The notes under the pieces were generated by a model. The model saw nothing but the letters and a program-made list of their open reading frames with translations, had not been told where the DNA came from and made no database searches. A stretch of 64,000 nt of DNA from Corynebacterium sp. P3-F1. Lineage in GTDB: Bacteria; Actinomycetota; Actinomycetes; Mycobacteriales; Mycobacteriaceae. The stretch lies in NCBI RefSeq assembly GCF_030503635.1, contig NZ_CP129965.1:806001-870000 (forward strand). The letters run 5' to 3'. Positions 1,758-54,860 of this stretch are shown here, in pieces; position 1 is the first letter of the stretch; each line of letters opens with the position of its first letter. Both the position numbers and the translations under genes were made by a program.

Positions 1758-2540
1758 ATGACGCGCGAGCTCAATGGCAACATCACGTCGCTTATCGACG
1801 GCCCCCTTGCCCTCATTCGCATCTCCAACCCCGCCAAGCGCAATGCATTGGAGCCGGATTCTTACTGGGCGATCGGCGACGCCGTCCAAGCAGCGAACGC
1901 CAACCCCGATGTGCGGTGCATCATCGTCACCGGTGATGAGAAGTCCTTTTGCTCCGGCATGGATATCGACGCATTCGTTGGCGAGAGCACGGCGGAAGTG
2001 GCGGCGCATTCTTTGGGCGGCATCGAGCACATGATCGGGTCGATCACCCGCGCCGACGTCCCGGTCATCGCTGCGGCCGAAGGCGCTGTGGCTGGTGTGG
2101 GCGCGTCGCTCGCGTGCGCGTGCGACCTCATCGTCGCTGCGGAATCGTCCTTCATCACCCTCCCCTTCGGGCGGATCGGACTGATGCCGGACGGCGGGGC
2201 CGTAGCCACCTTGGCCGCCTCGATCGGCCGCCACCGCACAATGCAACTGGTCCTTTTGCAGGAACGTATTCCTGCTGCGGACGCAGTGAACTTCGGTCTC
2301 TTCGCCGATGTCACGGCTGATGGCGAAGCATTGGATCACGCCAAGCAATGGGCCGAGAGCTTCTCCTCGTCCCCCCGTGGTGCTGTCGCCCAAACCAAGC
2401 GCGCCGTGAACCGAGTGGCCCTCACAGAGTTGCCGGGCAGCCTCATCAACGAGGCTCGGTTCCAGACTGAGCTGCTCCAGAGTCCTGGCCACAAGGAAGG
2501 TGTCGCCGCTTTCTTGGAGCACCGCGCACCGAAGTTCTAG
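1758..2540 (+). CDS. Enoyl-CoA hydratase/isomerase family protein
   Basis: The 260-aa protein is a full-length crotonase. ALIRISNPAKRNAL opens the fold, FCSGMDIDAF provides the first oxyanion-hole strand, and AAAEGAVAGVGASLACACDLIVAAE with GRIGLMPDGGA matches the second oxyanion region. A Glu at the usual first catalytic position is replaced by small residues, as in many crotonases of unknown reaction, so hydratase activity is not certain. It follows the nitronate monooxygenase with a 15-bp gap and its own AAGGAC ribosome site. A strong hairpin terminator ends the pair. One copy of the word GCTTATCGACG lies at 1790. Confidence 0.88.
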   Translation: MTRELNGNITSLIDGPLALIRISNPAKRNALEPDSYWAIGDAVQAANANPDVRCIIVTGDEKSFCSGMDIDAFVGESTAEVAAHSLGGIEHMIGSITRADVPVIAAAEGAVAGVGASLACACDLIVAAESSFITLPFGRIGLMPDGGAVATLAASIGRHRTMQLVLLQERIPAADAVNFGLFADVTADGEALDHAKQWAESFSSSPRGAVAQTKRAVNRVALTELPGSLINEARFQTELLQSPGHKEGVAAFLEHRAPKF

Positions 2541-2561
2541 CGGCTCCACCCATACTCGACG

Positions 2562-2599
2562 CCCCTTCCTCTGAGCCGAAATCGGTTCAGAGGAAGGGG
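2562..2599 (+). terminator. Rho-independent terminator after the NMO/ECH pair
   Basis: A near-perfect hairpin with 13-bp arms (CCCCTTCCTCTGA ... TCAGAGGAAGGGG) and a short loop, followed by TGTTTTCTCGTTT. It separates the hydratase gene from the iron-regulated efe promoter. Confidence 0.9.
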
Positions 2600-2622
2600 T
2601 GTTTTCTCGTTTCCGAAAGGCG

Positions 2623-2718: not shown

Positions 2719-3714
2719 ATGTTCATCGCCGCATTCCTGGTCGGCCTCCGCGAAGGCTTGGAAGCATCCCTCATCGTCGGCATGCTCTTCGCTGCTATCG
2801 CACGCCGCAAAAACGACGGCAGCAGGAACACCGGAACCGCAGAAGCATCCCGCACCGTATGGGTCGGTGTGATCTCCGCCGCTGTGATCTGCACCGCGCT
2901 CGGCGCCCTGTTCACATTCGGACGCTACGGCTTGTCGTTCCGGGCACAGGAAGCCATCGGCGGCATCATGTCGCTCATCGCAGTGGCCATGATCACCGGC
3001 ATGATCGTCTCCTTGAGCAACGAGAACGGCAAGCTGCGCACCATGCTCGACGACAAGACCGGGACCGCGCTGGCCAAAGGAAAGCAAGCGATGTTCTGGC
3101 TCGCGTTCGTCGCCGTCGCCCGCGAAGGCATCGAGCTCACGCTGCTGCTCTGGGGCTGGACCACCACCCCGAGCGCAGTCACCGGCGCGTTCCTGGGCAT
3201 TGGCATCGCCGTTGTGATGGGGTGGCTGATCTACCGCGGCGCGTTGAAGCTCGACCTGGGCACGTTCTTCACGTGGTCCAGCGCGCTTCTCATCATCGTC
3301 GCGGCGGGCATTCTCGCCTACGCCATCCACGATCTCCAGGAGGCGCAGTTCCTCCCCGGCCCCTTCTCCGGCGCGCCCATCGCCCCGACGCACCCGCGCA
3401 CCGGCGAGGTTCTCACCGGCTTCGATTCCTACCCGTTCTGGCTGGCGTCCTTCCCGTTCGGGTGGGCGTTCAACCTCGAAGGCGTCATTGATCCTGCCGG
3501 CATCACCGCCACGCTGTTGCAGGCGTTCACCGGCTTCATGCCCCAGATGTCCTGGCTCCAGGTCATCGGGTGGGGCGTGTACATCGCCATCATCGTGCCC
3601 ATCTTCATCGGTCACGTGAAGGCGGGGCGGCAAGGAGACGTCGATAAGCGCGAAAGCGAAATGGCCGCCACCCACCCGACTCACGAAGAAAACGCACGAA
3701 AGGTACCACTATGA
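2719..3714 (+). CDS. efeU: FTR1-family iron permease EfeU
   Basis: The 331-aa polytopic membrane protein carries the two RExxE iron motifs of the FTR1/OFeT family: REGLE at residues 11-15 and REGIE in the middle (AREGIELTLLLWG). About seven hydrophobic segments are visible. I start at the ATG at 2719 because family members begin with a few residues before LREGLEA; an in-frame ATG at 2665 would add 18 residues that overlap the DtxR-like sites. Its stop overlaps the efeO start (ATGA). It imports iron together with EfeO and EfeB. The word copy at 3640 encodes VDK in the hydrophilic C-terminal tail. Confidence 0.92.
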   Translation: MFIAAFLVGLREGLEASLIVGMLFAAIARRKNDGSRNTGTAEASRTVWVGVISAAVICTALGALFTFGRYGLSFRAQEAIGGIMSLIAVAMITGMIVSLSNENGKLRTMLDDKTGTALAKGKQAMFWLAFVAVAREGIELTLLLWGWTTTPSAVTGAFLGIGIAVVMGWLIYRGALKLDLGTFFTWSSALLIIVAAGILAYAIHDLQEAQFLPGPFSGAPIAPTHPRTGEVLTGFDSYPFWLASFPFGWAFNLEGVIDPAGITATLLQAFTGFMPQMSWLQVIGWGVYIAIIVPIFIGHVKAGRQGDVDKRESEMAATHPTHEENARKVPL

Positions 3715-4973
3715 AGCGCTCCCCTGCCCTGATCGCCGCTGTGGCTCTCACCCTCCCGCTGGCCGGGTGCGTGGAGAACAGCTCGGGCGACGCCATCGAG
3801 GTCCAGGCGAAAGAAGACGCCTGCCAGGTGGCCACGGATTCCGTGGAATCCGGCACCAGCACCTTCTCCATCACCAACGAAGGTGAGCGCGTCACCGAGT
3901 TCTACGTGCTCGCCGACGACGGGTTGCGCGTGATTGCCGAGCGCGAGAACATCGCGCCCGGGTCCACCGCGGAGCTGACAGTGCAACTCGAGCCGGGCAA
4001 CTACTTCACAGCCTGCAAGCCCGGCCTGCGCGGGGCCAACGTCGGCCAGAGCGAATTCACCGTGACCGGTGAGCCGATTCAGTACGACGAATCCGACGAG
4101 AAGCGCTTCAACGAGGCGCGCGACAACTACGTCGCCTTCGTCCAGAACGAGGTCGCGGAATTGCTGCCCAAGGTCGAGGAATTCGCCGAGGCATACGCCG
4201 CCGGCGACGACGAGAAGGCTAAGGCGCTCTACCCCACGACCCGCGTGCACTACGAGCGCATTGAGCCGGTCGCCGAGGCGCTCGGCGTTCTCGACGCCCG
4301 CATCGACTACCGCGAAGTGGACTACATCGCCGAGGCCGACGAGTTAAAGGAAGACGACCCGTCGTTCACGGAGTGGCTCGGCTTCCACCGCATGGAAAAG
4401 GACCTCTGGCCGCCTGCTGAGGACGCGAAGAACGCCGACGGCGCACCCGCCCGCGAGGGCTGGGAGCCGTCCACGCCGGAGCACCGCCGCGAGATCGCCG
4501 ACACTCTCATCGCCGATGTGGAGCAGCTGAACACCACCGTCAACGCGGACAACTTCATCGAGGACCAGGACATCACCGCCGACACCGTCTCCAACGGCGC
4601 GATGGGTCTGCTCGAAGAGGTGGCCACCACCAAGGTCACCGGCGAGGAGAACTGGTGGTCGCACAAGGACCTCTACGATTTCCAGGCAAATATCCAGGGT
4701 TCCCGCATCGCCTTCGACATGGTCAAGGGCATCGCCGCGGAGCGCGGTGAGGAGGGCAAACAGCTTATCGACGACATCGAGTCCCGCTTCAACGACATCC
4801 AAGAGCTCCTCGACCAGTACGGCAGCCTGGAAACCGGATTCGTCGACTACGATCAGGTGGACGCTGGCGAGCAGGCGAAGCTGACGCGTTCCCTGGACGC
4901 CCTGCGCGAGCCGCTGTCCAACCTGACCGGCACCGTCCTTGGGCTCAATGTCGATGCGGGAGATGAGTCCTAA
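3711..4973 (+). CDS. efeO: Iron uptake lipoprotein EfeO (cupredoxin + imelysin/M75)
   Basis: The 420-aa protein begins with a lipoprotein signal (ALTLPLAGC, Cys about residue 19), so it should be anchored outside the membrane. A cupredoxin-like domain follows (to about residue 125, with FSITNEGERVTEFYVLADD), then an imelysin/M75 domain (about 135-415). The M75 HxxE metal motif is visible as GFHRMEKDLW. In known EfeUOB systems EfeO captures iron extracellularly and hands it to EfeU. It overlaps efeU by 4 nt and abuts efeB with no gap, so translational coupling is likely. Confidence 0.92.
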   Translation: MKRSPALIAAVALTLPLAGCVENSSGDAIEVQAKEDACQVATDSVESGTSTFSITNEGERVTEFYVLADDGLRVIAERENIAPGSTAELTVQLEPGNYFTACKPGLRGANVGQSEFTVTGEPIQYDESDEKRFNEARDNYVAFVQNEVAELLPKVEEFAEAYAAGDDEKAKALYPTTRVHYERIEPVAEALGVLDARIDYREVDYIAEADELKEDDPSFTEWLGFHRMEKDLWPPAEDAKNADGAPAREGWEPSTPEHRREIADTLIADVEQLNTTVNADNFIEDQDITADTVSNGAMGLLEEVATTKVTGEENWWSHKDLYDFQANIQGSRIAFDMVKGIAAERGEEGKQLIDDIESRFNDIQELLDQYGSLETGFVDYDQVDAGEQAKLTRSLDALREPLSNLTGTVLGLNVDAGDES

Positions 4974-6227: not shown

Positions 6228-8023
6228 GGGGTGGGGTGGGTGCGCTGCCAGGTGCCGTCGATAAGCGCGATTGCCCCTGCGTCCTCGAAGGCGCGCAGCC
6301 ACCCCTCCATCGGCCACGTGCCCCATTTGCTGTGGAAGACCTCGGCGTTGCGCAGGATATCGTCGAGGTGCTCCCACGGCGGAGAAGAGACCGGATGCCA
6401 CTGGTGGTAAGCGTGGGCGCCGCCGACCCACAGAAGGTCGATACCGTGCTCGCGCAGGTTCCACGCGAAGTCCGTGTCCTCCCCGCCGTAGCCCGAGTAC
6501 GCTTCGTCGAAGCCTCCGAAACTATCGACGATCTTCTCCCACGTTCCCGCGGTGCACGCAAAGGACAGAGACCAGAACAGGTTGTAATCCTCCGCCCGCT
6601 GCACCTCGCCCGCCGGCGGGTTCGGCCGCGCCGGGTGGGGGTCCGGATCCACGGTGCGCAGCTCACCCTCCTTCATGTAGGTGACGGGACCTGCGACGAC
6701 AGCATCCGGGTGCTCCGCGAGCGCCTTCATATACAGCGGGACCAAGTCCCCGCCCGCGACGCAATCGGCGTCGAGGAACACAATGATGTCGTTACCGCGC
6801 GCGACCGCCTCGGCCGCTCCCCTGTTGCGCGCGCGGGCGAGGTTCGGATGGCTGGTGGTGTCCTGCTTATCGCTATCCATGGGAATCACGTGGCTCTTGG
6901 GCACCGCTTTCTCCAGCGTCTTGTGGTCTGCGAGAGCGACAGTGATGTGGTCCGTGCCCTCAGGCGCGAGGTTGACCTGGTGGGTGAGGTGGTTGACGCG
7001 ACCCGCGTTGGCCAGCGTCACAATCGCCGCCTTCGCGTCCGCAGGGTCTGCGGCGACATGAGCGATGACCTCGGCTGCCCGGCGCGCGGACCCGTCAGTC
7101 TCCCAGCGGGACCAGTCGGCGTTCAGCTCGCGTGTAGCGGCGAGCACACCCGGCCACTCCTCCGGCGCCGGGAAGCGCGCGGGCACGACGGCGAGACCTT
7201 CGCGGGCGAGCAGCTGGGCGGACGTCTTCTGCTCGATGAACGGCCGCGGCTGCGGGAGGATCACCGCTGGGGCGCCCAGGTGAGCGATGTCCGCAATCGA
7301 GTTCTGGCCGCCCGCGGCCACCACGACGCCCGCAGAGGCGATCAGCTCCGTCGGGTCGTCCACACGGTTCTCCCCGGTCAGGAACGTGAAGTGGTAGTCG
7401 GGGCAGGCCGCCGCCACGGCGTCCCAGTCCCCCGGCTCCCACGTCGACCCGCCCTGGCCGGCCATGACCACGACGTGGTGCGGGTCACGCTCGGGTTCCT
7501 GCGCCGGATCGGGCCGCTGGAGCCTGGTGATCCCGCCGACCGGGTGGAGCCGGTCCGAGTGCATGCGCATGTGCTCCGGCACCGGCACCCAGGACGGCCA
7601 CGCGGCGATAATGGCGTCGGACTGGCGGTAGGCGAGCTGGTGCGGCGGGTCATCCCGCAGCCCGGGCATAGCCAGCGTGATCACGGGCACGCCCATGAGA
7701 CGCAGGAACATGCACATCTCGGCGGAGACGTCCACGTAGAACGCCGCCGGATCATTCTCAGCCACCCAGGAAGCGACGGCCGCGAAGCGTTCCCGCAGCC
7801 CGCGGTTGCCGTACGGCGCGTAGTGGAGGGTGCCGCCGGCGGTCATCGCGCGGCCGGAGTGGCCGTGGCCCGCGTCATCCGCGATCACCACATCCGCTCC
7901 CGGTGCGGTGGACAAGATGGCGGCGTCCCAACCCAATTCGTGCAGTTCACGCTGGATCATCCGGCAGCGCTGAATGTGCCCGCTGCCGTGGTGGTGCGAA
8001 TAAATGCCGATGAGTTTGTTCAC
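6224..8023 (-). CDS. Bifunctional glycosyltransferase: MurG-like GT28 fused to GT2
   Basis: The 599-aa protein (GTG start, overlapping the upstream stop) contains two enzymes. Residues 1 to about 330 form a GT-B unit: HGSGHIQRCRMIQRELHELG resembles the MurG/GT28 acceptor loop, and AAGGQNSIADIAHLGAPAVI with FIEQKTSAQLL is the nucleotide-sugar half. Residues from about 335 form a GT-A unit with the DxD motif FLDADC at 418-420 and the acceptor motif GGFDEAYSGYGGEDTDF near 503-518. No transmembrane segment is visible, so it should act on the cytoplasmic face. It is the last gene of a three-gene minus arm. Two consecutive sugar transfers by one chain is an inference. Confidence 0.8.
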   Translation of the reverse strand: MNKLIGIYSHHHGSGHIQRCRMIQRELHELGWDAAILSTAPGADVVIADDAGHGHSGRAMTAGGTLHYAPYGNRGLRERFAAVASWVAENDPAAFYVDVSAEMCMFLRLMGVPVITLAMPGLRDDPPHQLAYRQSDAIIAAWPSWVPVPEHMRMHSDRLHPVGGITRLQRPDPAQEPERDPHHVVVMAGQGGSTWEPGDWDAVAAACPDYHFTFLTGENRVDDPTELIASAGVVVAAGGQNSIADIAHLGAPAVILPQPRPFIEQKTSAQLLAREGLAVVPARFPAPEEWPGVLAATRELNADWSRWETDGSARRAAEVIAHVAADPADAKAAIVTLANAGRVNHLTHQVNLAPEGTDHITVALADHKTLEKAVPKSHVIPMDSDKQDTTSHPNLARARNRGAAEAVARGNDIIVFLDADCVAGGDLVPLYMKALAEHPDAVVAGPVTYMKEGELRTVDPDPHPARPNPPAGEVQRAEDYNLFWSLSFACTAGTWEKIVDSFGGFDEAYSGYGGEDTDFAWNLREHGIDLLWVGGAHAYHQWHPVSSPPWEHLDDILRNAEVFHSKWGTWPMEGWLRAFEDAGAIALIDGTWQRTHPTP

Positions 8024-9123: not shown

Positions 9124-10091
9124 CGCCCCTCTCCCGCATCGAGTGCGGCCGCGTAGATGCCCGCGTGAATTTGCTTGATCGCGCGCAGCTGCGCGCCGCG
9201 GTCGCCGCGGTACGGCACCGGGCCGGCTGCGAGGAGCTCGGCAGCGGCGCGCCCCGCATCGGTGCCGTCGCCTGTGCGGTACACCGACACAGCCTCGGAC
9301 GCGTCTGCTTGGTCGGCGTAGCAGCCGCAATCAGGGACTGCGACGCTCACTCCCAGGTCGCGGCACATCTCCAGCCAGCCAGAGTGCGTCCCCCGCACGT
9401 ACGGCAGAATGCACACTCGGTGGGAGGCGACAGCGGGGTGCAGTTCATGGTCGTTCATGGGGGTGTGACGGACGGGGGTGATGCCGTCGATAAGCGAAAG
9501 CTCTTTGTGGAGCTGAAGGGTCGCATCGACGTCGTGCATGTACACGGTGAGCGGAACACGCGCGGCGATTGCGCGGTAGAAGTCCGCGTCCGCGACGGCG
9601 TTGGCTCGCAGCGATTTAAGGAATATCGCGGCATCCGCGTCCGCTTCCACATCGGGCGGTTGCTTGACCACGGCCGGGTGCCCCACCACCGCCACATCCT
9701 CCCGCCCGTAGCGTTGCGCGATGGTGGCCGCCGCTGACTCGGTGAGCGTGACCACCTGCTTGGCAGCGCGGACGAGCACCCCCACATTCGCGCGGTGGCG
9801 TTCCTGGTCAACCGGATCCGACAGGTGCGGATTGTCCAGATCGTGCACTGTGACGACAAGCGGCACCGGCAGCGCATCCACCAGCTCTTGGAGCTGCTCC
9901 GGGGTGCGGTGCTCGTACCCGAAGTGGATGTGCACTAGATCCACATCACGCGGCGTGTCCCACCACTCGGCTTCCAGCGCAGGGTGCGGCCACCAGTTGC
10001 CGTCGATGTCGGGGTCGGGGTGAAAGCTCACTCCTTCAGGCTTAATCGCCTGCGGGTAGACATGTTCCGCAGGGATCGAGAGAACTTTCAT
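9120..10091 (-). CDS. Glycosyltransferase-like GT-B protein
   Basis: The 323-aa protein looks like a GT-B fold of the GT4 type but with a less standard C-terminus. Visible features are DLVHIHFGYEHRTPEQLQELVDAL, VVTVHDLDNPH, QVVTLTESAAATIAQRYG (the usual linker helix of GT4 enzymes) and THSGWLEMCRDLGVSVAVPD near the donor site. The ATG at 10091 is preceded by AAGGGCGGTGGA; a GTG five codons upstream lies inside that ribosome site. It is the first gene of the minus arm, so transcription probably starts in the 10.1-10.2 kb divergent region. Confidence 0.72.
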   Translation of the reverse strand: MKVLSIPAEHVYPQAIKPEGVSFHPDPDIDGNWWPHPALEAEWWDTPRDVDLVHIHFGYEHRTPEQLQELVDALPVPLVVTVHDLDNPHLSDPVDQERHRANVGVLVRAAKQVVTLTESAAATIAQRYGREDVAVVGHPAVVKQPPDVEADADAAIFLKSLRANAVADADFYRAIAARVPLTVYMHDVDATLQLHKELSLIDGITPVRHTPMNDHELHPAVASHRVCILPYVRGTHSGWLEMCRDLGVSVAVPDCGCYADQADASEAVSVYRTGDGTDAGRAAAELLAAGPVPYRGDRGAQLRAIKQIHAGIYAAALDAGEGR

Positions 10092-12032: not shown

Positions 12033-13213
12033 TCAGCGTCGTCATCCCGCACTACAACGCCCCCGAGCACCTCGCCCGGGTCGTGGAGGCCGTCCGCACG
12101 CAGGACGTTGCCGACGAGGTGGAAATCATCGTCGCCGACGACGGGTCCGACCACGTCCCCCACGTGCCCGACGCGACGGTGGTCTCCCAAGACGACCTCG
12201 GCTTCCGCGCCGCGGCCGCACGCAACCTCGGCGCGTCCCACGCCCGCGGCGAGATTCTCGCTTTCCTCGACGGCGACACCATCCCCGAACCCGGCTACCT
12301 CGCCGCGGCCGCACGCCACGTTGCGGCCGACTCGCGCGCCGTGGTCGTGGGCACCCGGCTGACAGGACCGTCACGCACCGAGCCCCAATGGCTTATCGAC
12401 GCCTGGTCTACCACCCACCACCTCTCCACCCCCGACGACACCTCCTGGCGTTTCATCATCTCCTCCGTGCTCACCTGCTCGAGGGACTTCTTCGAGCGCA
12501 TCGGCGGTTTCGACGGCTCCTTTATCGGCTACGGCGGCGAGGACTGGGAATTCGGGTTCCGCGCCTGGAATGCCGGCGCGACCTTCGTTCACGAACCCGC
12601 CGCTGTCGCCGTCCACGACGAGGACGATTTCGGCGGCCGCTTCCCCGACCCCGCAGAGGAAGCGCGTGTGAAGAATGTGGAGACCACGGCCCTCGCCCAC
12701 CGCATCACGCATCCCATCGCACGCCCGTCCGGTGTCCGCTTTGGCACCACGGATCTCAGCGTGTACCTCGCCCACCACCCCGAATTCGACAGCCCCGGTG
12801 TCCTCGAGCTGGTGGTCAGCTCCTGGCTCGCCCTCGACGCCACCATTTATCTCAACTCCGCCCTGGACATCCCCGATCTCTTCCGGACAGATCCCCGCGT
12901 GCGCCTCTATCCCGCCACCGGCTACAGCTCCATCTCAGACCACCGCATCTCAGTCGATGTCGACGGCGCCTTCGTCCTCGACAGCGCCGAGCGGTTCCAC
13001 CGCTTGCTCCGCGAGACGAAAGACGGTTTATTCGTCCAGCTCTCCCCCTCACATTCCTCGACTTCCCCGACGCTGACCATCCGCTCGCACCGCTCACGCA
13101 TTCTGCGTACCCTCCCCCGCACGCTCGACGGGTCCGACAGCTCCCTCGCCGAATTCGGCCTTTCGCTCTTTGACGGACCGGTCCGCCTCGAGCGCCGCTT
13201 CGCTGGCTGGTAG
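12029..13213 (+). CDS. Glycosyltransferase family 2 (GT-A) with GT7C-type acceptor motif
   Basis: The 394-aa protein starts at an ATG overlapping the previous stop (ATGA). It opens with ISVVIPHYNAPEHLARVVEAV and VEIIVADDGS, carries a DxD motif in LAFLDGDTIPE, and has GGFDGSFIGYGGEDWEFGFRAW, the same GGED acceptor motif as the C-terminal half of the fusion protein at 6.2-8.0 kb. About 150 extra C-terminal residues follow (YLNSALDIPDLFRTDPRV), of unknown fold. The two GGED enzymes may act on related acceptors. Confidence 0.85.
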   Translation: MISVVIPHYNAPEHLARVVEAVRTQDVADEVEIIVADDGSDHVPHVPDATVVSQDDLGFRAAAARNLGASHARGEILAFLDGDTIPEPGYLAAAARHVAADSRAVVVGTRLTGPSRTEPQWLIDAWSTTHHLSTPDDTSWRFIISSVLTCSRDFFERIGGFDGSFIGYGGEDWEFGFRAWNAGATFVHEPAAVAVHDEDDFGGRFPDPAEEARVKNVETTALAHRITHPIARPSGVRFGTTDLSVYLAHHPEFDSPGVLELVVSSWLALDATIYLNSALDIPDLFRTDPRVRLYPATGYSSISDHRISVDVDGAFVLDSAERFHRLLRETKDGLFVQLSPSHSSTSPTLTIRSHRSRILRTLPRTLDGSDSSLAEFGLSLFDGPVRLERRFAGW

Positions 13214-13257: not shown

Positions 13258-14283
13258 GTGAAAACCCTCAAGGCCTTCGGAAAAGTCCTGCTCTGGGTGC
13301 TGGCTGCCCTGCTAGTGCTGGTGCTCGTGGTGCTTGGCCTGCGCGCATTCAACGGACATGAGTACCCGATCACCAGCTTGAACGACGAGAGCTTCAGCGA
13401 CGACAAATCCTCCTACGCAACCTCGGACCGGATAGCCGCGATCGAGGGCAAGTATCTCAACGGCTTCCACTTCCGCCCAGAGGAGAAGAAGCACAAAGGC
13501 GTCATCGTGGTCTACGGCGGATCGGAGGGGTCCCCGGACTACGACCGGGCATCGGCGCTTGCCGACGACGGCTACGAAGTCCTCAGCCTGTTCTTCTTCG
13601 GCCAGCCCAACCAGGCACCATCTCTCGCCAATGTTCCGCTGGACCAATTCGACGAAGTCAGGGACTACATCAAAGAGAATGCCGAGGATGAAGGGCCGGT
13701 AACGGTGATTGGCACGTCGAAAGGCGCTGAATTCGCGGAGCTGCTCGCTGCTAAGGGATTCGCCGTCGATAATGTGGTGGCTTTCGCACCGGGCCACTAT
13801 TCGTACAGTGGCCTGGATTTCTCCAGCGGCGAGGACCTGCCCTCCTTCACCAGCCGCGGCAAGCCGGTTGAATGGGCGTCCTTCAGGAAGGCCTCCATTA
13901 CTGCAGGCGCGAAAGTCATGTGGGACATGGCCACGAAATACCCGGTCTCCTACCGCTCAACATATGAAAGCGCGGCAAAGAATTCGGACGATAGTGCGCG
14001 CATCAATCTGAGCAATTTCGACGGGAATGTTCTGCTCTTCGGCGGCGAAGACGACCAGATGTGGCAGTCCGATGTCGCGGCCCGTGCGCTAGCGGAGCAG
14101 GGCGGGAACATCGAGGCACACGTCTACCCCCGTGCCGGGCATATTTTCGCGTACTTCCCCAATTCCGAGGAGATGCCGAACGGCTGGCAGATCATGTTCG
14201 GTGGCACAGCCGAGGGAAACCGAGCCGCCCACGACGACACGGAGAGGATACTGCGCGAGCGGCTCGCGCAGTGGCACGGCTAG
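13258..14283 (+). CDS. Membrane-anchored alpha/beta hydrolase, acyl-CoA thioesterase/BAAT-like
   Basis: The 341-aa protein starts with GTG and has one N-terminal membrane segment (about residues 8-29, rich in Leu/Val) with the rest probably outside the cell. The soluble part resembles the BAAT C-terminal family: KGVIVVYGGSEGSPDYDRASALADDGYEVLSLFFFG, the nucleophile elbow GTSKGAE, and a late His in YPRAGHIFAYFPN with the Asp of FGGEDDQMW. It may cleave thioesters or esters. The gap to the glycan cluster is 44 bp, so a link is possible but not shown. Confidence 0.72.
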   Translation: MKTLKAFGKVLLWVLAALLVLVLVVLGLRAFNGHEYPITSLNDESFSDDKSSYATSDRIAAIEGKYLNGFHFRPEEKKHKGVIVVYGGSEGSPDYDRASALADDGYEVLSLFFFGQPNQAPSLANVPLDQFDEVRDYIKENAEDEGPVTVIGTSKGAEFAELLAAKGFAVDNVVAFAPGHYSYSGLDFSSGEDLPSFTSRGKPVEWASFRKASITAGAKVMWDMATKYPVSYRSTYESAAKNSDDSARINLSNFDGNVLLFGGEDDQMWQSDVAARALAEQGGNIEAHVYPRAGHIFAYFPNSEEMPNGWQIMFGGTAEGNRAAHDDTERILRERLAQWHG

Positions 14284-21096: not shown

Positions 21097-21774
21097 TCAG
21101 CCGAAGAGGTTGATGCCCCCGGAGGTGTAGTAAACACTGCCGAAAGGCGCGTCGAGTCGGATCCAGCGGCCGGCGGTGGACACTCGCAGGTGACGCGGGA
21201 TCTCCACCGGCGCGCCGGGCCCAGGGATGAGCCCTAGCGACGTGCAGGTGAAGATCATGCGCATCGGCACATTCACAGCGGGCCCCGAGGTCTCCTCGGC
21301 GTCGGCGGTGAGCACGATCTGCTCGAGCAGGGAACGCGGCGGCCCCATCGGCCCCGAGAATTGCCGGGCTAACCGCCGGCCCTGATCCGCCAGATCCCGC
21401 ACCACGTTGACGGGCACGATGTCGCGCTCAGTGAAGCCGGTCTTCGGCGACAAAGCGCCGAGCCAATTCGCGTCGCGGGCGGGCCCGATCTCGAGTGGGC
21501 GCGCGATTTCTGCATTAGCGTCCCCGGCCGCGAGAGCGTCGCGGAGGTCCTGCAGCGACACCACGGCCCCGTCACGGGATGCCTGCCCCGCCACCCGGCG
21601 CGATGCGACGCAGTTGAACGGAGTGGTGACAAAGACATCGACGGCGGGGGTATCGGGGTTGGCATCGAACGTCGAAAAGCGTGCTGAACCCGTGCTGTCC
21701 AGGGCGAGCGCGCGTTCAACGAGCGCTTTCAACCCGGCTGCCCCGGCGTCGATACGGAGGGATTCGGTAGCCAC
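21097..21774 (-). CDS. Conserved actinobacterial hypothetical protein (Rv2474c-like position)
   Basis: The 225-aa protein starts with GTG, overlapping the thioesterase stop by one base. I recognise no catalytic motif. Visible parts are an N-terminal helix with LKALVERALALDSTGSARF, a strand-rich middle (DVFVTTPFNCVASRRV) and a C-terminus with beta-hairpins (WIRLDAPFGSVYYTSGGINLFG). No signal peptide or membrane segment. Its place directly after a thioesterase and ettA is conserved with Rv2474c, so it is a real gene; function unknown. Confidence 0.75.
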   Translation of the reverse strand: MATESLRIDAGAAGLKALVERALALDSTGSARFSTFDANPDTPAVDVFVTTPFNCVASRRVAGQASRDGAVVSLQDLRDALAAGDANAEIARPLEIGPARDANWLGALSPKTGFTERDIVPVNVVRDLADQGRRLARQFSGPMGPPRSLLEQIVLTADAEETSGPAVNVPMRMIFTCTSLGLIPGPGAPVEIPRHLRVSTAGRWIRLDAPFGSVYYTSGGINLFG

Positions 21775-29792: not shown

Positions 29793-30593
29793 ATGAGTTT
29801 CCCCTCCCCGACACGGAATTCTTACGCCCTGATCACCGGCGCGAGCCAAGGCATCGGCGAAGCCATGGCGCGTGATTTCGCTGCCGAAGGCCACAACCTC
29901 ATCATTGTCGCCCGGCGCGAGGACGTCCTGTCCAAACTCGCGGCTGAGCTCGAGCAGAAGCACGGCATCGACGTCATCGTGGCGGCGCATGATCTGTCGG
30001 TCACGGAAGACGTCGATAAGCTGCTTTCGCTTATCGACGAAAAGTGCGTCTCCATCTGCGTGAACTCTGCTGGAATCGCCTCCTTCGGGCCCTTCTTGGA
30101 CCAGGACTGGACGTATGAGACGAACCAGTTCAACCTGAACGCAACGGCCGTCTTCCGCATCACCAAGGCGGTGCTCGACCACATGGTCCCGCGCGGCGAG
30201 GGTGCACTGTGCAATGTCGGGTCCGCCGCCGGTAACGTCCCGATCCCGAACAACGCCACCTACGTGCTCACCAAAGCCGGCGTCAACGCGTTCACCGAAG
30301 CCCTCCACTACGAACTGAAAAAGACCGGCGTGCACTGCACCTTGCTCGCACCCGGCCCGGTGCGCGATGCCGTCATCCCGGAAGAAGAGCAGTCCATCGT
30401 GGACAAGGTCGTCCCCGACTTCCTCTGGACCACCTACGAGTCCTGCTCGCGCGAGACCATCGACGCCATGAAGAAGAACCGCCGCCGCATCACGCCCGGC
30501 CCCCTGTCCAAGGCCATGGACTTCGTCTCTTCCTACGCGCCCCGTGGTGCGCTGGCTCCTGTGATGGGCTGGTTCTACGCCAAGATGGGCTAG
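29793..30593 (+). CDS. cmrA: Short-chain dehydrogenase, corynebacterial mycolate reductase
   Basis: The 266-aa SDR has the NADPH loop [17 protein letters not shown], the NSAG strand ([11 protein letters not shown]), a Ser in [10 protein letters not shown] and the catalytic YVLTK. It matches CmrA (Rv2509), which reduces the 3-oxo mycolate after condensation, and its position just before orn is shared with mycobacteria. TAGGCT at 29780-29785 stands 7 nt before the ATG at 29793 (leaderless). Two copies of GCTTATCGACG, one inverted, sit at 30011-30039 and encode VDKLLSLID. Confidence 0.82.
30011..30039. repeat. Inverted pair of the over-represented word GCTTATCGACG
   Basis: CGTCGATAAGC (30011-30021), loop TGCTTTC, GCTTATCGACG (30029-30039): a perfect 11-bp inverted repeat inside cmrA. 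The forward word GCTTATCGACG starts at 1790, 4763, 12392, 16798, 18025, 30029 and 52956. Its reverse complement CGTCGATAAGC starts at 3639, 6256, 9485, 18691, 30011, 41272, 45771 and 54839. Ten of the 15 are preceded by C (CGCTTATCGACG). None lies in the metal region 31.4-38.6 kb. Confidence 0.85.
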
Positions 30594-38650: not shown

Positions 38651-38671
38651 TTCGCGTTGGTCTCGGTCCGT

Positions 38672-40136: not shown

Positions 40137-40209
<73 letters not shown>

Positions 40210-40297: not shown

Positions 40298-40903
40298 GTG
40301 AGTACCGAGCCTTTCTCCCCCAGTGCCCCGATTGCTGCTGTCACGGTATTTGCCGGCGCGCGCGAAGGGGTGGACGAGACGATGACTACGGCCGCGTACA
40401 ACTTCGGAACAGCTCTCGCCCGCAACGGCATCACTCTCGTCTACGGAGGCGGCCGCCTGGGCATGATGGGAGCCGTCGCGCAAGGCGCGATCGACGGTGG
40501 CGGAGAAACGGTCGGAATCATGCCTAAGCACCTCGCCCAGCACGAGATCGCTCATACGGGTCTGACCGAACTCGTCTTGGTGGACAGCCTCGCAGAACGC
40601 AAACGCGTCATGAACGAAAGATGCGGCGCATTCGTCGCGCTCCCCGGAGGCGCGGGCACACTCGACGAGCTTTTCGACGAATGGACCAACCAGCAACTCG
40701 GCCTCCACACCAAACCCATCGGGTTGCTCGATGCGGCTTTCTGGCACCCCTTGACCGCCATGATCGATCACCTGGTCGCCGCGGGCTTCGTCCGCCAGGC
40801 AGACCGCGACAGCCTCATCGTCGCCGACTGCCCCGACGCGTTGTTGCAGGCCTTGGCTGACTGGGAGCCGCAACCGCCTCGGTGGGGACAGCCCACGTTG
40901 TAG
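40298..40903 (+). CDS. LOG-family nucleotide phosphoribohydrolase (TIGR00730)
   Basis: The 201-aa protein contains LVYGGGRLGMMGAVAQGAIDGGGETVGIMP and the catalytic LPGGAGTLDELFDEWTNQQLG (PGGxGTxxE) of LOG proteins, which release the base from nucleoside 5'-monophosphates (cytokinin-activating or purine metabolism). GTG 40298 is preceded by TAAATT and 7 nt, a leaderless arrangement; GGAAG lies in that spacer too. It is followed after 10 bp by pncA, so both may belong to nucleotide/NAD salvage. Confidence 0.9.
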   Translation: MSTEPFSPSAPIAAVTVFAGAREGVDETMTTAAYNFGTALARNGITLVYGGGRLGMMGAVAQGAIDGGGETVGIMPKHLAQHEIAHTGLTELVLVDSLAERKRVMNERCGAFVALPGGAGTLDELFDEWTNQQLGLHTKPIGLLDAAFWHPLTAMIDHLVAAGFVRQADRDSLIVADCPDALLQALADWEPQPPRWGQPTL

Positions 40904-40913: not shown

Positions 40914-41501
40914 GTGGACACAGCGAACACTGGAAAACGAGCACTCGTCGTTGTCGACGTGCAGAACGACTTCTGCCCGGGCGGTGCGCTGGGAACCGAG
41001 CGGGGCGACATCGTCGCCGAGAAGATCGCGGACTTGATCGGCGCCGACGGTGAGGGAGCCGGCACCTACTCCCGCATCGTCGCCACCCAGGACTGGCACA
41101 TCAACCCAGGCACGCACTTCTCCGAGACTCCCGATTTCATTGACTCGTGGCCTGTTCATTGCGTGGCCGAATCCGAGGGGGCGGCGCTGCGCGAACCGAT
41201 CGCCGACGTCGCCTTCGACGAGTTCTTCCGCAAAGGCGAGTACGAGGCGGCGTACAGCGGGTTCGAGGGGGCGTCGATAAGCGAAAATGCCCTGCTCGCG
41301 GAATGGCTGCGTGCGCGCGGCGTCGACGAAATCGATGTCGTGGGCATCGCGACCGACCACTGCGTGCGCGCAACCGTGCTCGACGGGCTGAAAGAAGGGT
41401 TCAGCGTACGCGTTCTCAGCGATTTGTGCTCGCCGGTGGACGACGTGCGTGGCGCCCACGCCCTCGACGAGATGCGCGAAGCCGGGGCGGTCATCGCATG
41501 A
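40914..41501 (+). CDS. pncA: Nicotinamidase/isochorismatase-family hydrolase
   Basis: The 195-aa protein fits PncA: VVVDVQNDFCPGGALGTERG has the catalytic Asp, ATQDWHINPGTHFSE the metal-binding DxH...H, FFRKGEYEAAYSGFEG the catalytic Lys, and GIATDHCVRATVLDGL the nucleophilic Cys. It converts nicotinamide to nicotinate, which pncB (50.7 kb) uses. GTG start 7 nt after TAGGCT (leaderless). A word copy at 41273 reads A-S-I-S using the rare codon ATA, unlike its neighbours. Confidence 0.93.
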   Translation: MDTANTGKRALVVVDVQNDFCPGGALGTERGDIVAEKIADLIGADGEGAGTYSRIVATQDWHINPGTHFSETPDFIDSWPVHCVAESEGAALREPIADVAFDEFFRKGEYEAAYSGFEGASISENALLAEWLRARGVDEIDVVGIATDHCVRATVLDGLKEGFSVRVLSDLCSPVDDVRGAHALDEMREAGAVIA

Positions 41502-44042: not shown

Positions 44043-44093
44043 AATTGCGCTCCCTTAAAAAAGCTTTTCGACGTTGCGTTTTCCCCTTCGACC

Positions 44094-45512: not shown

Positions 45513-46286
45513 CTATACCTCGTAGACGTCCTTCGCGTTGCCGACGACAATCTCGCCGTCGAATTCCTCGGCCGCGGCCCGCAGGGTGGCATCCTTGTCC
45601 GTCCAGGGTTGGATGTGAACGAGGACCAGCTTTCTCACTCCCGCTTCCCGGGCAATCCGGCCAGCTTCCCGGCCCGACATGTGCATCCCAGCAGGCGTGT
45701 TCTCATCTGTCTCCGGACCCCACGCGGCTTCGCAGAGGAAGAGGTCGGCGCCGCGTGCTGCGTCGATAAGCGTGGGCGCGAACGCGGAATCGCCGGAGAA
45801 GGTGATTACCTTGCCCGAATCCCGGTGCTCGATCCGCAGCGCATGCGATTCAACGGCGGGGTGCACGACAGGGAACGGAGTGACCGTCACTTCATCAATG
45901 GTCAGCGGTTGCCCGTTCCATGACCGGACATCGAACGTGTCCGAAATATCGTCGATATCATCCGGGCCATTCGCCCCCAGCCGGCCGAGGTGCTCCGGCG
46001 CGTAGCTCGGCCCGGCGAGAATGTGGCGACGGGTAGCAGGCGCCGTCGGATGGAAGCGACGCCACACGATCAACGACGCCGTGTCAGAACAGTGATCGGC
46101 ATGCAAATGGCTGAACACCAGATGCGCATCGGACGGATCCGCGACATCCTGCAATGCAGCTAGTGCCCCAGGCCCGAAGTCCATGAGAATGCCAGGCTGT
46201 CCCTCATCTGGATTGACCAGATACGACGAGCCGGGATTGCCCGGTGCCGACAACGACCCCGTGCAGCCGAGAACTGTCAATTTCAT
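45513..46286 (-). CDS. MBL-fold hydrolase, cAMP phosphodiesterase-like (Rv1339 type)
   Basis: The 257-aa protein is a metallo-beta-lactamase-fold enzyme: KLTVLGCTGSLSAPGNPGSSYLV at the N-terminus, VFSHLHADHCSD (HxHxDH), VVHPAVESHALRIEH, ITFSGDSAFAP and VLVHIQPW. The N-terminal pattern and the place beside murI and rph match Rv1339, a protein shown to act as an atypical cAMP phosphodiesterase; RNase Z-like activity is an alternative. A word copy (LIDAARG) is at 45771. It is 40 bp from rph, likely separate transcript. Confidence 0.86.
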   Translation of the reverse strand: MKLTVLGCTGSLSAPGNPGSSYLVNPDEGQPGILMDFGPGALAALQDVADPSDAHLVFSHLHADHCSDTASLIVWRRFHPTAPATRRHILAGPSYAPEHLGRLGANGPDDIDDISDTFDVRSWNGQPLTIDEVTVTPFPVVHPAVESHALRIEHRDSGKVITFSGDSAFAPTLIDAARGADLFLCEAAWGPETDENTPAGMHMSGREAGRIAREAGVRKLVLVHIQPWTDKDATLRAAAEEFDGEIVVGNAKDVYEV

Positions 46287-52096: not shown

Positions 52097-54099
52097 CGGG
52101 CACCGAGCCGGAACAGGACCGTCCGCTGTCGCTGTCCACAGAGGAGCTTCTCGACGCCGCAATCGATTCCCTCGGAGGCTCCCGGCGCTCGGGCCAGATG
52201 GCCATGGCGGAAGCTGTGTCCCACGCGTTGGAGACAGAACGGCACCTCGCTGTGCAAGCTGGCACCGGCACCGGTAAATCTCTCGCCTACCTGGTTCCGG
52301 CAATCCGTTACGCGCAATCGACGGACACGACGGTGATCGTGTCCACGGCGACACTGGCGCTGCAGCGTCAGTTGGTGGACCGCGACCTCCCCCGCCTCGT
52401 CGAGGCACTCGAGCCTTTGCTGCCGCGCACCCCGACCTTCGCGATTCAAAAGGGGCGCTCGAATTACCTGTGCCTGAATAAGCTCACCGTGGAGCAGGAG
52501 GCGCCCGAAGCACTCATGGACACCGAGGATGTCTCGTGGTTGGGGCGTCACATTAAGCGTGTCCACGAGTGGGCGGACGAGACGGGAACGGGAGACCGCG
52601 ATGAGCTTGAACCCGGTGTTCCGGACGCCGCCTGGCGCCAAGTCTCCGTCACCGCGACAGAGTGCGTGGGCGCGACGCGTTGCCCACACGGCGAGGAGTG
52701 CTTCGCAGAAGCCGCGCGGCGACGCACACAGGACGTCGACGTCGTGGTCACCAACCACGCACTGCTTGCCATCGACGCCATGTCGGATGCGAATATCCTC
52801 CCCGACCACGACGTGGTGATCATCGACGAGGCGCACGAACTCGACGGCCGAGTCACCTCCGTGGCCACGAACGAGCTTTCTGCCCGTGCGCTCACACTCG
52901 CCGCGCGCCGCGCCGGGAAGCTCAAAGCAAAGACCGAGCAAAGCAAGCTCGAAGAGCTTATCGACGACTTCTCCGCCGTGCTTGACCTCGAATCCCCCGG
53001 CAGATGGGAGACGATCTCAGACCCTGCCCGCGCCTCCTTCGTCGCGGTGCGCGACGCGCTGTGGCGGACCCGCGAGACAATCGCCCGCGGCCCGGAGGGG
53101 GAATCCACCAATGCCCCGGAAACATTCGCCGAGCGGGAAAACCTGAAGAACCACCTGACCGAATTGCACGATTCGCTCGTCCGCATTCTGGAGGTCTTCG
53201 ACGAGGAGGACCCGGCGAAGCATTTCGATGTTGTCTGGCTCACCCGTTCAGAACGCTACGGCGATTCTGTAGCGGTCGCCCCGCTGTCGGTATCTGCGCT
53301 GCTACGCGAGAGGCTGTTCAGTGAGCAGACCGTGGTGCTTGCCTCAGCCACGCTGGCAGTCGGCGGCAACTTCCGAGCCATGGCCGCCAACTGGGGGCTG
53401 CCCGACGGCTCGTGGGACAGCTTGGACGCCGGCACTCCCTTCGACCCCCGCACCAGCGGCATCCTCTACATTGCCAAACATCTCCCGCCACCGGGCCGGG
53501 ACGGACTGCACCCCGCCACACTCGAAGAAATGGCCGAGCTGATTACTGCGGCGGGAGGTAGGACTCTGGGGCTCTTCTCATCCAAACGCGCGGCAGTGGA
53601 AGCTGCAGAAGCGCTACGCACGCGCCTGCCCTTCGACATTCTCGTCCAGGGCGACGATTCCATTGGTGCCCTGGTCAAGGAGTTCACCAACAACGAGAAT
53701 TCCTGTCTTTTCGGCACCCTCACCCTGTGGCAGGGTGTGGACGTTCCAGGCAGCTCACTGTCCCAGGTAATCATCGACCGCATTCCCTTTCCCCGCCCCG
53801 ACGACCCGCTGCTGCAGGCACGCAGCAACGCTGCTGACGCCGCAGGCCGCTCCGGCTTCATGGAAGTCTCCGCCACCCACGCCGCCCTTTTGCTCGCTCA
53901 AGGTACCGGGCGTCTGCTGCGCAGCACCACCGACAGAGGCGTCGTCTCTGTTCTGGATAGCCGCCTCGCCACAAAGCGCTACGGGCAGTTCCTCCGAGCC
54001 TCGCTTCCCAGTTTCTGGGAGACAACCGACCCCGACGTCGTGCGCGGCGCCCTGCGCCGCCTCACCGCCCCGGGGCAAAGCGAATCGAAGCGCAGCTAA
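52093..54099 (+). CDS. DinG/XPD-family ATP-dependent helicase
   Basis: The 668-aa helicase has Walker A AGTGTGKS (56-63), a cluster of four Cys between the A and B motifs (LCLNKLT...ATECVGATRCPHGEECF) that should hold an iron-sulfur cluster, DEAH in VVIIDEAHELDGR, and C-terminal motifs VLASATLAVGG, LFGTLTLWQGVDVPG and LLLAQGTGRLLRS. It unwinds DNA 5' to 3' in repair. GTG start overlaps the pncB stop by 4 nt, so it is coupled to a metabolic gene. The word GCTTATCGACG is at 52956. Confidence 0.92.
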   Translation: MTGTEPEQDRPLSLSTEELLDAAIDSLGGSRRSGQMAMAEAVSHALETERHLAVQAGTGTGKSLAYLVPAIRYAQSTDTTVIVSTATLALQRQLVDRDLPRLVEALEPLLPRTPTFAIQKGRSNYLCLNKLTVEQEAPEALMDTEDVSWLGRHIKRVHEWADETGTGDRDELEPGVPDAAWRQVSVTATECVGATRCPHGEECFAEAARRRTQDVDVVVTNHALLAIDAMSDANILPDHDVVIIDEAHELDGRVTSVATNELSARALTLAARRAGKLKAKTEQSKLEELIDDFSAVLDLESPGRWETISDPARASFVAVRDALWRTRETIARGPEGESTNAPETFAERENLKNHLTELHDSLVRILEVFDEEDPAKHFDVVWLTRSERYGDSVAVAPLSVSALLRERLFSEQTVVLASATLAVGGNFRAMAANWGLPDGSWDSLDAGTPFDPRTSGILYIAKHLPPPGRDGLHPATLEEMAELITAAGGRTLGLFSSKRAAVEAAEALRTRLPFDILVQGDDSIGALVKEFTNNENSCLFGTLTLWQGVDVPGSSLSQVIIDRIPFPRPDDPLLQARSNAADAAGRSGFMEVSATHAALLLAQGTGRLLRSTTDRGVVSVLDSRLATKRYGQFLRASLPSFWETTDPDVVRGALRRLTAPGQSESKRS

Positions 54100-54122
54100 A
54101 AGCACAGAAGTAACAGTGCGAA

Positions 54123-54860
54123 CTAGGAGTACCTACCGGGCAGCGCCACCACCGTCGTGGAGCCAGGAGCAACCTCGGTGAAACCGCTGTCCTGCACAGC
54201 TACCGCCGCGGGGTGCTCAGCCAGATCGGCGAACACGCTCCGCGGCACCTCGCGCACCTGCAGCGGGAAACCATCGGCAGCCCACTCGACTACCGCTTCA
54301 CCGGACAGTGCCGCCGCGAGCAGCATCGAGCCGTGTCCCGCCTGCGCCGCGGCCTTGCCCGCAGTCATCTCCAACGACGCGTCCACCGCGATAGTGGGAA
54401 TGCCTGTTTCGCCCGGGCTGTCCTCCTCGAGCGGGAGATCGGTCCCCCGAATCTGCAATTTGGAAATCGCATGCGGCACCTCCGCCACCGCCGACGGGAT
54501 GAAGGCGCGGGCGGTCGCGCCTCTGACCACAGCAGTGCAGCCCGGCAACGCCTGCACCCCGTCCCAGGCTGCGCCACGGGCACGGCGGGCGATCTTCCGG
54601 ATCCGATGGCCGTACCACTGTTCAAGGGCGTCGCGCCACGAGCCCGGATGCGCAGCCCTCGAGTCGAGGCACACCTCCACGACAGCCTGCGCAGCCGCCG
54701 CGAGTACTTCCGTGCGTTTGGGTAGATCCGCCTTGGGCAGGTGCAGCGCGATCTGCATCGCCTGCACGGTTTGCGGGTCGTCTGGGTCCTCGGCGCCCCG
54801 CCCCGGGGAGGACAAGCTGTCGCAGAGGAACCCGTGGGCGTCGATAAGCTCGCTGCCCAT
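54123..54860 (-). CDS. Peptidyl-tRNA hydrolase 2 (PTH2)-like protein
   Basis: The 245-aa protein has a C-terminal domain with the PTH2 core: IAVDASLEMTAGKAAAQAGHGSMLLAAAL, in which GKAAAQAGHG copies the archaeal/eukaryotic Pth2 motif (GKxxAQxxHA), and GFTEVAPGSTTVVALPGRY at the end. The N-terminal ~110 residues are extra and helical (QIALHLPKADLPKRTEVLAAAAQAVVEVCLDS). Bacterial cells normally use Pth1, so this may be a second hydrolase acting on other aminoacyl-tRNAs. It overlaps serB by one base. A word copy sits at 54839. Confidence 0.75.
   Translation of the reverse strand: MGSELIDAHGFLCDSLSSPGRGAEDPDDPQTVQAMQIALHLPKADLPKRTEVLAAAAQAVVEVCLDSRAAHPGSWRDALEQWYGHRIRKIARRARGAAWDGVQALPGCTAVVRGATARAFIPSAVAEVPHAISKLQIRGTDLPLEEDSPGETGIPTIAVDASLEMTAGKAAAQAGHGSMLLAAALSGEAVVEWAADGFPLQVREVPRSVFADLAEHPAAVAVQDSGFTEVAPGSTTVVALPGRYS

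What the first reader, a model, noticed from the sequence alone, without database searches (positions are those of the whole stretch)
1790..54849. An 11-base word, GCTTATCGACG, occurs 15 times across the core genes
By eye I find GCTTATCGACG starting at 1790, 4763, 12392, 16798, 18025, 30029, 52956, and its reverse complement starting at 3639, 6256, 9485, 18691, 30011, 41272, 45771, 54839. Random expectation for a given 10-mer on both strands in 64 kb is about 0.12. All 15 extend to the 11th base and 10 of 15 also have C in front (CGCTTATCGACG). The word is used in different reading frames (LID, VDK, ASIS), including the rare codon ATA in pncA, so it is not simply a peptide motif. No strand bias is seen (7 against 8). 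None is in the metal region (31.4-38.6 kb). This resembles a DNA-uptake word, a modification/recognition word or a nucleoid-protein site; I know of no such word described for corynebacteria.
Basis: partly seen in the sequence, partly recalled or inferred. Interest (0 to 1): 0.72.

Follow-up and report, generated by a model that had tools for sequence, protein, structure and literature searches.

The report
Genus-wide DNA word in Corynebacterium
A short DNA word, GCTT-two free bases-CGACG, is written a thousand or so times into the genomes of many Corynebacterium species, probably as a signature by which these bacteria recognise and take up their own kind's DNA, although that function has not been tested.

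Summary
In detail: 15 exact copies of GCTTATCGACG in 64 kb, against 0.03 expected from a Markov model and 0.35 from synonymous-codon shuffles. The real unit is gapped, 5'-GCTT-NN-CGACG-3'; the window holds 24. It is the top-scoring 4-N2-5 pattern of the window's genes against codon shuffles. Of 242 Corynebacterium genomes, 166 carry at least 300 copies (median 1095, maximum 1964), 14 at least 300 of a dialect, GCTT-NN-CGATG, one genome being in both sets; 52 have neither. Of 343 genomes of the order outside that genus set, none reaches twice its reversed-pattern control. The word shows no strand or replichore bias, lies mostly inside genes, is exact (one-base variants at chance) and is kept at orthologous sites in the nearest relative. 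ComEA, ComEC and a Tad-type pilus locus, gene kinds tied to transformation in Micrococcus luteus, are encoded, but motif-less species have them too, and no receptor was found. Best explanation: a DNA uptake sequence (about 0.5). Main rival: a HIP1-like chromosome-maintenance word.

The parts
1790..1800 (+). exact word GCTTATCGACG
3639..3649 (-). exact word GCTTATCGACG
4763..4773 (+). exact word GCTTATCGACG
6256..6266 (-). exact word GCTTATCGACG
9485..9495 (-). exact word GCTTATCGACG
12391..12401 (+). exact word GCTTATCGACG (reader gave 12392)
13557..13567 (+). spacer variant GCTTGCCGACG
16798..16808 (+). exact word GCTTATCGACG, in the pepN gene
18025..18035 (+). exact word GCTTATCGACG, in the pepN gene
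18691..18701 (-). exact word GCTTATCGACG, in the pepN gene
21670..21680 (-). spacer variant GCTTTTCGACG
23348..23358 (-). spacer variant GCTTCTCGACG
26538..26548 (-). spacer variant GCTTGCCGACG
30011..30021 (-). exact word; with 30029 forms a perfect 11-bp inverted repeat with a 7-base loop, inside a called gene
30029..30039 (+). exact word; partner of 30011
40669..40679 (+). spacer variant GCTTTTCGACG
41272..41282 (-). exact word GCTTATCGACG
44063..44073 (+). spacer variant GCTTTTCGACG
45761..45771 (-). exact word GCTTATCGACG (reader gave its end, 45771)
52146..52156 (+). spacer variant GCTTCTCGACG
52956..52966 (+). exact word GCTTATCGACG
54839..54849 (-). exact word GCTTATCGACG
59360..59370 (-). 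spacer variant GCTTGACGACG
61630..61640 (+). spacer variant GCTTTCCGACG

Best explanation
GCTT-NN-CGACG is a self-recognition DNA word of Corynebacterium that works like the DNA uptake sequences of Neisseriaceae and Pasteurellaceae. Proposed mechanism: a surface or envelope protein, probably part of the Tad/Flp pilus or ComEA, binds duplex DNA bearing the word; the pilus and ComEA/ComEC bring it in; and recombination of preferentially imported, word-bearing kin DNA keeps and spreads the word, so that it accumulates wherever the coding sequence allows it (Leu-Ile-Asp and Val-Asp-Lys above all). A change of receptor specificity would explain the CGACG to CGATG dialect switch. Shown here: abundance, exactness, DNA-level conservation in the nearest relative, lack of polarity, dialects, restriction to the genus in the sample searched, and presence of pilus and com genes. 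Inferred: receptor, uptake and biased recombination.
For: Abundance like known uptake words: median 1095 copies in 166 of 242 genomes, maximum 1964. No orientation bias: forward and reverse totals are close in the carriers, and in G023, sampled round its 2.28-Mb contig, 57 lie forward and 58 reverse, both orientations in every one of 11 stretches. Exactness in six samples: 297 exact against 28.6 expected from codon shuffles, one-off variants 331 against 362, two-off 3123 against 3074. DNA-level maintenance: 10 of 17 aligned window sites keep all nine fixed bases in the nearest relative against 1.8 expected, 3 of the 10 with a changed spacer; the excess fades with distance. Genes with matches in at least two of the other three samples carry 83 in 162,111 bp, genes with no match 19 in 68,673 bp, p=0.013 (caveat in the report). 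Near-exclusive dialects: 13 of 14 genomes with at least 300 CGATG words have fewer than 100 CGACG words, G038 having 352, and the four CGATG genomes in the TadA tree lie together. A pilus and com apparatus is encoded: T2SSE ATPase (TadA), two T2SSF proteins, a DUF4244 small protein and small pilin-like proteins, ComEA and ComEC; Flp-pilus-dependent transformation in the actinobacterium Micrococcus luteus is in PMC4322843 (passages).
Against: No competence of any Corynebacterium appeared in my searches. ComEC is in 241 of 242 genomes, so it does not track the word; motif-less G022, G057, G124, G142, G150 and G236 have TadA hits and ComEC hits with no stop inside, while the carriers C. lactis (G012, 1618 words), G028 and G233 show ComEC in two pieces and the carriers G174, G175, G194 and G202 gave no TadA hit. 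Weak or absent TadA goes with lack of the word (34 of 52 against 8 of 179), but 24 of those genomes form one clade, so this may be one event. No receptor: small pilins showed no charge pattern. Unlike Haemophilus USS the word is rarely paired as in terminators. In the conservation test one control word, the reversed one, was also kept (6 of 8 against 1.0). One-off variants are at chance, sharper than I would expect if mutated copies persist.
Confidence: 0.5

Rival explanations
1. A chromosome-maintenance or nucleoid word, HIP1-like in habit: an intracellular protein (nucleoid, segregation or repair factor) binds the word throughout the chromosome and selection keeps exact copies.
For: Exact, mostly intragenic, found in every stretch sampled of one contig, and vertically inherited; the uptake apparatus is also present in species without the word.
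Against: Dialect change within one genus, individual sites that turn over at near-chance rate beyond the closest relative, and absence in scattered species of the carrier part of the TadA tree suit a receptor-driven word better than an essential architectural site. I have no candidate protein.
Confidence: 0.25
2. A Chi-like recombination word read by a helicase-nuclease (AddAB, AdnAB or RecBCD type).
For: Asymmetric and dispersed, as Chi is (recalled); gapped Chi words exist (recalled, Haemophilus).
Against: Both orientations in every one of 11 stretches round the G023 contig, 57 and 58 in all; nine fixed bases is long for Chi (recalled); dialects within a genus would be unusual. Presence of helicase-nucleases was not tested.
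Confidence: 0.1
3. A modification or restriction word: recognition site of a methyltransferase shared by the carriers, kept because modification is useful.
For: A bipartite word with a fixed spacer is a plausible enzyme site.
Against: Restriction sites tend to be avoided, not over-represented (recalled); 179 carrier species would need one near-universal enzyme. No methylation data here, and methyltransferase genes were not searched.
Confidence: 0.05
4. A by-product of codon usage or of a common peptide.
For: Most copies read Leu-x-Asp or Val-Asp-x.
Against: Synonymous-codon shuffles give 0.35 against 15 and 28.6 against 297; 106 of 597 copies are wholly outside called genes; synonymous neighbours are not raised alike (GCTG..CGACG 24 against 48.8, GCTC..CGACG 67 against 52.9).
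Confidence: 0.01

Closest known systems
DNA uptake sequence (DUS) of Neisseriaceae, receptor ComP
   Same: Thousands of copies and dialects that follow the phylogeny, some differing by a single base (PMC3630211, passages); here CGACG or CGATG.
   Different: Different phylum and different word; gapped by two free bases; no ComP-like receptor found; few inverted pairs (10 of 597 copies start within 45 bp of an opposite neighbour).
Uptake signal sequence (USS) of Pasteurellaceae
   Same: About 1300 copies of a 9-base consensus in H. influenzae according to PMC5217627 (passage), similar to the 1095 median here; no strand bias (recalled).
   Different: USS pairs form many terminators in H. influenzae (same passage); here 106 of 597 copies are wholly noncoding (17.8%) against 20.5% noncoding sequence. 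No flanking conservation beyond a codon rhythm here.
HIP1 (GCGATCGC) of cyanobacteria
   Same: A highly iterated word in most members of a lineage, with exceptional low-frequency members (PMC4390886, start of abstract).
   Different: HIP1 is a palindrome with orphan methyltransferases (same abstract); this word is asymmetric and gapped, with a one-base dialect.
Flp/Tad-pilus-dependent transformation of Micrococcus luteus
   Same: comEA/comEC orthologues plus tad loci required for transformation (PMC4322843, passages); the same kinds of genes lie in C. meitnerae (G001, tad), G002 and G003 (com).
   Different: The term 'uptake sequence' does not occur in the main text of that paper; I examined one tad cluster per genome, M. 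luteus has two.
Chi and KOPS words
   Same: Short, asymmetric, over-represented, dispersed (recalled).
   Different: Those are orientation-biased relative to replication (recalled); this word is not in the genome tested (G023).

Membership tests
DNA uptake sequence (DUS/USS) | Hundreds to thousands of copies far above background | tested here: met
   166 of 242 genomes with at least 300 copies of the CGACG word, 14 of the CGATG word, one in both; the median CGACG count of the 52 without is 52
DNA uptake sequence (DUS/USS) | Both orientations used equally, no replichore polarity | tested here: met
   57 forward and 58 reverse in 11 stretches of G023; close totals per carrier genome. One small exception: the exact ATspacer word in C. 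lactis, 20 and 39, while its gapped word is 822 and 796
DNA uptake sequence (DUS/USS) | Dialects exclusive to lineages | tested here: met
   13 of 14 CGATG genomes have fewer than 100 CGACG copies; the four CGATG rows of the TadA tree lie together, with motif-less G057 among them
DNA uptake sequence (DUS/USS) | Bias to core genome | tested here: inconclusive
   83 in 162,111 bp against 19 in 68,673 bp, p=0.013, in four syntenic samples; genes without a match may merely lie outside the shared region, and genes matched in one sample only were left out
DNA uptake sequence (DUS/USS) | Competence pilus, ComEA and ComEC encoded in carriers | tested here: met
   as genes present; exceptions: no TadA hit in carriers G174, G175, G194, G202, ComEC in two pieces in carriers G012, G028, G233
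DNA uptake sequence (DUS/USS) | Word and uptake apparatus lost together | tested here: inconclusive
   Weak or absent TadA in 34 of 52 motif-less against 8 of 179 carriers, but largely one clade; ComEC present in 241 of 242
DNA uptake sequence (DUS/USS) | Frequent use as inverted pairs in terminators (typical of USS, not essential) | tested here: not met
   10 inverted neighbouring pairs within 45 bp among 597 copies, 8 of them in called genes
DNA uptake sequence (DUS/USS) | A receptor that binds the word | tested here: inconclusive
   Charge of small Tad-locus pilins in 20 loci shows no pattern; no binding data
DNA uptake sequence (DUS/USS) | The word raises DNA binding or uptake | not testable with these tools
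   needs a bench test
HIP1-like iterated palindrome | Palindromic word | tested here: not met
   GCTTNNCGACG is not its own reverse complement (sequence)
Chi or KOPS | Orientation bias along replichores | tested here: not met
   one genome (G023)
Dispersed mobile repeat (REP, MITE) | Copies share sequence beyond the word | tested here: not met
   Flanks of the copies in 10 samples carry only a codon-position rhythm, at most 0.5 bit per position; sites change base by base between orthologues
Restriction or modification site | A base in the word is modified | not testable with these tools
   no raw-signal sequencing data

The most novel reading that the evidence does not exclude
Corynebacterium has a genus-wide DNA self-recognition code, perhaps the first uptake-sequence system outside Proteobacteria: a bipartite exact word with two dialects and, in one genome (G026), an unrelated replacement word, read by a Tad/Flp-pilus or ComEA-linked receptor on cells with a mycolic-acid envelope, so that natural transformation has been a regular, kin-selective process through much of the genus's history.
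Probability: 0.42. Interest if true: 0.93.

Novelty: new variant of a known kind. Interest (0 to 1): 0.86.

Why it matters
To my knowledge (recalled) uptake words are established only in Neisseriaceae and Pasteurellaceae. A third, independent case in Actinomycetota would show that self-selective DNA uptake evolved repeatedly and would predict natural competence in a genus where my searches listed none. If the uptake reading is wrong, a word kept about a thousand times per genome in about 180 species still points to an unidentified sequence-specific protein of the genus. Either way the word gives a bait for finding that protein, a possible sign of foreign DNA in these genomes, and a tool for choosing strains and DNA for genetics.

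Tried and rejected
Peptide or codon artefact: rejected by codon shuffles. A GACTTCTTGGC word in G008/G009 looked like a dialect, but codon usage explains much of it (10 against 4.6, shuffle maximum 12). De novo search for other words in motif-less G057, G124, G142, G210, G236 and G022, 100 kb each: no word with a fold-excess like that of the control samples (GCTT..CGACG 38 against 4.4, GCTT..CGATG 25 against 1.8), although by my score G236 (CGTCGACG 124 against 47.5) and G210 (CGCCGAGG 119 against 46.5) come close and G057 has a palindrome (TCATCGATGA 14 against 0.5); these were not pursued. Terminator use: rejected. Pilin-charge receptor hunt: no signal. ComEC and ComEA as discriminators: present almost everywhere. 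Association with Tad genes: T2SSF matches 0 or 1 in 26 of 52 motif-less against 20 of 179 carriers; TadA weaker than about 1e-95 or absent in 34 of 52 against 8 of 179; strong by count, but largely one clade, so not used as proof. In the conservation test the reversed control word kept 6 of 8 sites against 1.0 expected, while four other control words together kept 0 of 39 against about 4.4 expected; numbers are small, both directions of a pair are counted, and I cannot explain the reversed-word result.

Limits: the uptake idea rests on analogy. Counts per genome were copied by hand into; the cut-offs (300 for a carrier, 120 for intermediate) are mine. Samples were parts of genomes, and genes were called by a simple codon model of my own, not a standard annotator. 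For the CGATG pattern the reversed control is a poor baseline (35 against 4 even in 69 non-Corynebacterium loci), so I judged it against the motif-less genomes.
Full report
What was claimed and whether it is there. All 15 exist, 7 forward and 8 reverse; two coordinates were slightly off, and ten have C in front. Expected copies are 0.03 under a third-order Markov model, 0.14 under a fourth-order one and 0.35 when codons are shuffled among synonymous positions (200 shuffles, maximum 3). Of 12 Leu-Ile-Asp tripeptides in the genes called here, 11 are written CTT ATC GAC, although CTT is 7.7% of leucine codons.

Host. No whole genome of the window is held. The aminopeptidase N of the window is 92% identical to that of Corynebacterium meitnerae (L001, genome G001) and 72-78% to six further Corynebacterium loci, so the host is a Corynebacterium close to C. 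meitnerae.

The word is gapped. Summed over five carrier samples (window, G001, G002, G023, G024) the exact word is 96 against 3.5 expected, and among one-base changes mainly those of bases 5 and 6 and, less, of base 3 are tolerated. Among 4-N2-5 patterns seen at least 8 times, GCTT..CGACG scored highest against codon shuffles in the window, G002, C. lactis (G012) and C. senegalense (G006); GCTT..CGATG did so in G015 and G018; neither was listed for G008 or G021. The window has 24 GCTT-NN-CGACG words, one per 2.7 kb, with no copy between 30,039 and 40,669. In six samples exact words are 297 against 28.6, one-off words 331 against 362 and two-off words 3123 against 3074: the word is close to all or nothing, apart from GCGT..CGACG at 39 against 14.6.

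Distribution in the genus and beyond. GCTTNNCGACG was counted in 242 Corynebacterium genomes and GCTTNNCGATG in the same 242. With 300 copies as a cut-off of mine, 166 genomes carry the first (median 1095, maximum 1964), 14 the second, one (G038) both, 11 are intermediate and 52 have neither. Controls, the pattern read backwards, stayed at about 20 to 120 per genome for the first pattern. In an even sample of 348 genomes of the order five belong to the genus set: four carriers stood out (G001, G011, G121, G241) and the fifth, G025, is motif-less. The other 343 bear handles that were not in the genus search; by my reading of the table none reached twice its control, the highest ratio being about 1.8. 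The 69 non-Corynebacterium pepN loci, 1.40 Mb, held 18 copies against 58 of the reversed control; for the CGATG pattern they held 35 against 4, so that its reversed control is a poor baseline and I judged that dialect against the motif-less genomes (mostly 35 to 85 copies).

Anatomy. In 10 samples there are 597 words, 106 of them wholly outside called genes (17.8%, against 20.5% noncoding sequence); neighbouring inverted pairs that start within 45 bp number 10, of which 8 lie in called genes, so the word is not typically a terminator part. Flanks show only a codon rhythm. In genes the word lies mostly in the Leu-x-Asp frame (210 of 328) or, reversed, in the Val-Asp frame (63 of 328), with 55 copies in other frames. 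In G023, 11 stretches around the 2.28-Mb contig hold 57 forward and 58 reverse copies, both orientations in every stretch. Genes with blastp matches in at least two of the other three syntenic samples carry 0.51 per kb, genes with none 0.28 per kb (83 and 19 copies, p=0.013). Genes matched in only one sample were left out of this count, and a gene without a match may simply lie outside the shared region, so I treat the core bias as suggestive.

Evolution. Of 17 window words that align with C. meitnerae genes, 10 keep all nine fixed bases against 1.8 expected from all aligned 11-mers of the same phase; in 3 of those 10 the spacer changed. Against more distant relatives the excess shrinks towards chance (for example window to G002, 4 of 14 against 1.3; G002 to G003, 5 of 40 against 3.8). 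Five control words were tried; four kept 0 of 39 sites and the reversed word kept 6 of 8, which I cannot explain. Single sites therefore seem to come and go while the population of words persists.

Machinery. C. meitnerae (G001) encodes a T2SSE ATPase (TadA), two T2SSF proteins, a DUF4244 small protein and two further small proteins in one cluster; relatives G002 and G003 encode ComEA and ComEC side by side. ComEC matched in 241 of 242 genomes, in two pieces in G012, G028 and G233. ComEA's domain matched in 78 of the 78 genomes given to that search at a loose threshold, 72 over the curated cut-off; for G191 and G183 the only match is a much larger protein. In Micrococcus luteus two tad clusters are required for transformation, and mutants of the comEA/EC locus were examined there as well (PMC4322843, passages). 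TadA is weaker than about 1e-95 or absent in 34 of 52 motif-less genomes against 8 of 179 carriers. A TadA tree was made from a chosen subset: 53 rows, 34 from motif-less genomes and 19 labelled carrier, of which one is intermediate (G206), one genome (G011) appears twice and three rows are fragments; one locus (L146) gave no row. In it 24 motif-less genomes form one clade with 100/99 support, and all rows labelled carrier lie in the other part together with 10 motif-less ones; the label needs five changes. This fits one origin and several losses, but it also means that the TadA association is mostly one event. The four CGATG genomes in the tree cluster, with motif-less G057 among them.

Interpretation. 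Abundance, exactness, lack of polarity, dialects, vertical inheritance with losses, and turnover of single sites fit a DNA uptake sequence best. What is missing is direct: no competence is known to me in the genus, no receptor was found (pilin charges uninformative), and species without the word keep the apparatus. A chromosome-maintenance word of the HIP1 habit is the main rival; Chi or KOPS are disfavoured by orientation; restriction or modification is untested.

Novelty and literature. Searches for Corynebacterium with uptake-sequence or competence terms, for the word itself (20 of 61 papers listed), for Tad pili and M. luteus with uptake sequences (15 of 196 listed) and for recurrent or Chi words listed no paper whose title or abstract start describes it. 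I saw listings and abstract starts only, except passages of PMC5217627 (spaced motifs in 569 genomes; its Corynebacterium hits in the passages read are CRISPR repeats; its supplementary table of all motif pairs was not seen), PMC4322843 and PMC3630211. The two papers that hold TTATCGACG together with Corynebacterium (PMC12272175, PMC8019695) were not opened. Most subscription papers and bioRxiv preprints are not in that library.

Noticed in passing
genome G026 (unnamed Corynebacterium, 2.03 Mb); samples L118-L121: A different iterated word, TGACG-Y-CGCG with A/T-rich 5' flank, 563 forward and 581 reverse copies against 50 of the control; the next of the 67 other genomes tested is G035 with 143. 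It may be a third, unrelated dialect.
   Followed up: partly
window 30011-30039: Two words form a perfect 11-bp inverted repeat with a 7-base loop inside a called gene.
   Followed up: partly
window 30040-40668: The longest stretch without any copy of the gapped word; it holds two P-type ATPase genes (31526-33457, 35381-37867) and lies near a tRNA-His (31285) and a tRNA-Lys (40137): possibly an acquired island.
   Followed up: no
genome G191: No ComEC match and no ComEA-sized match, with only 211 CGATG words; G163, with 213, gave no T2SSF match. Possibly decaying systems, or draft gaps.
   Followed up: no
L106-L109 (G001, syntenic to the window): Six matches, both strands counted, of the A+T-rich repeat TGTAAAATTTTA in 80 kb.
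   Followed up: no
L094-L103 (G023): Eight matches, both strands counted, of TGTTTCACGTGA, half of a parS-like palindrome (name recalled), in the sampled 200 kb; fewer places if the site is palindromic.
   Followed up: no
L122-L125 and L006 (C. senegalense, G006): GAAGACCTCAG occurs 9 times in 102 kb against 0.08 expected; a second word or a repeat, not examined.
   Followed up: no
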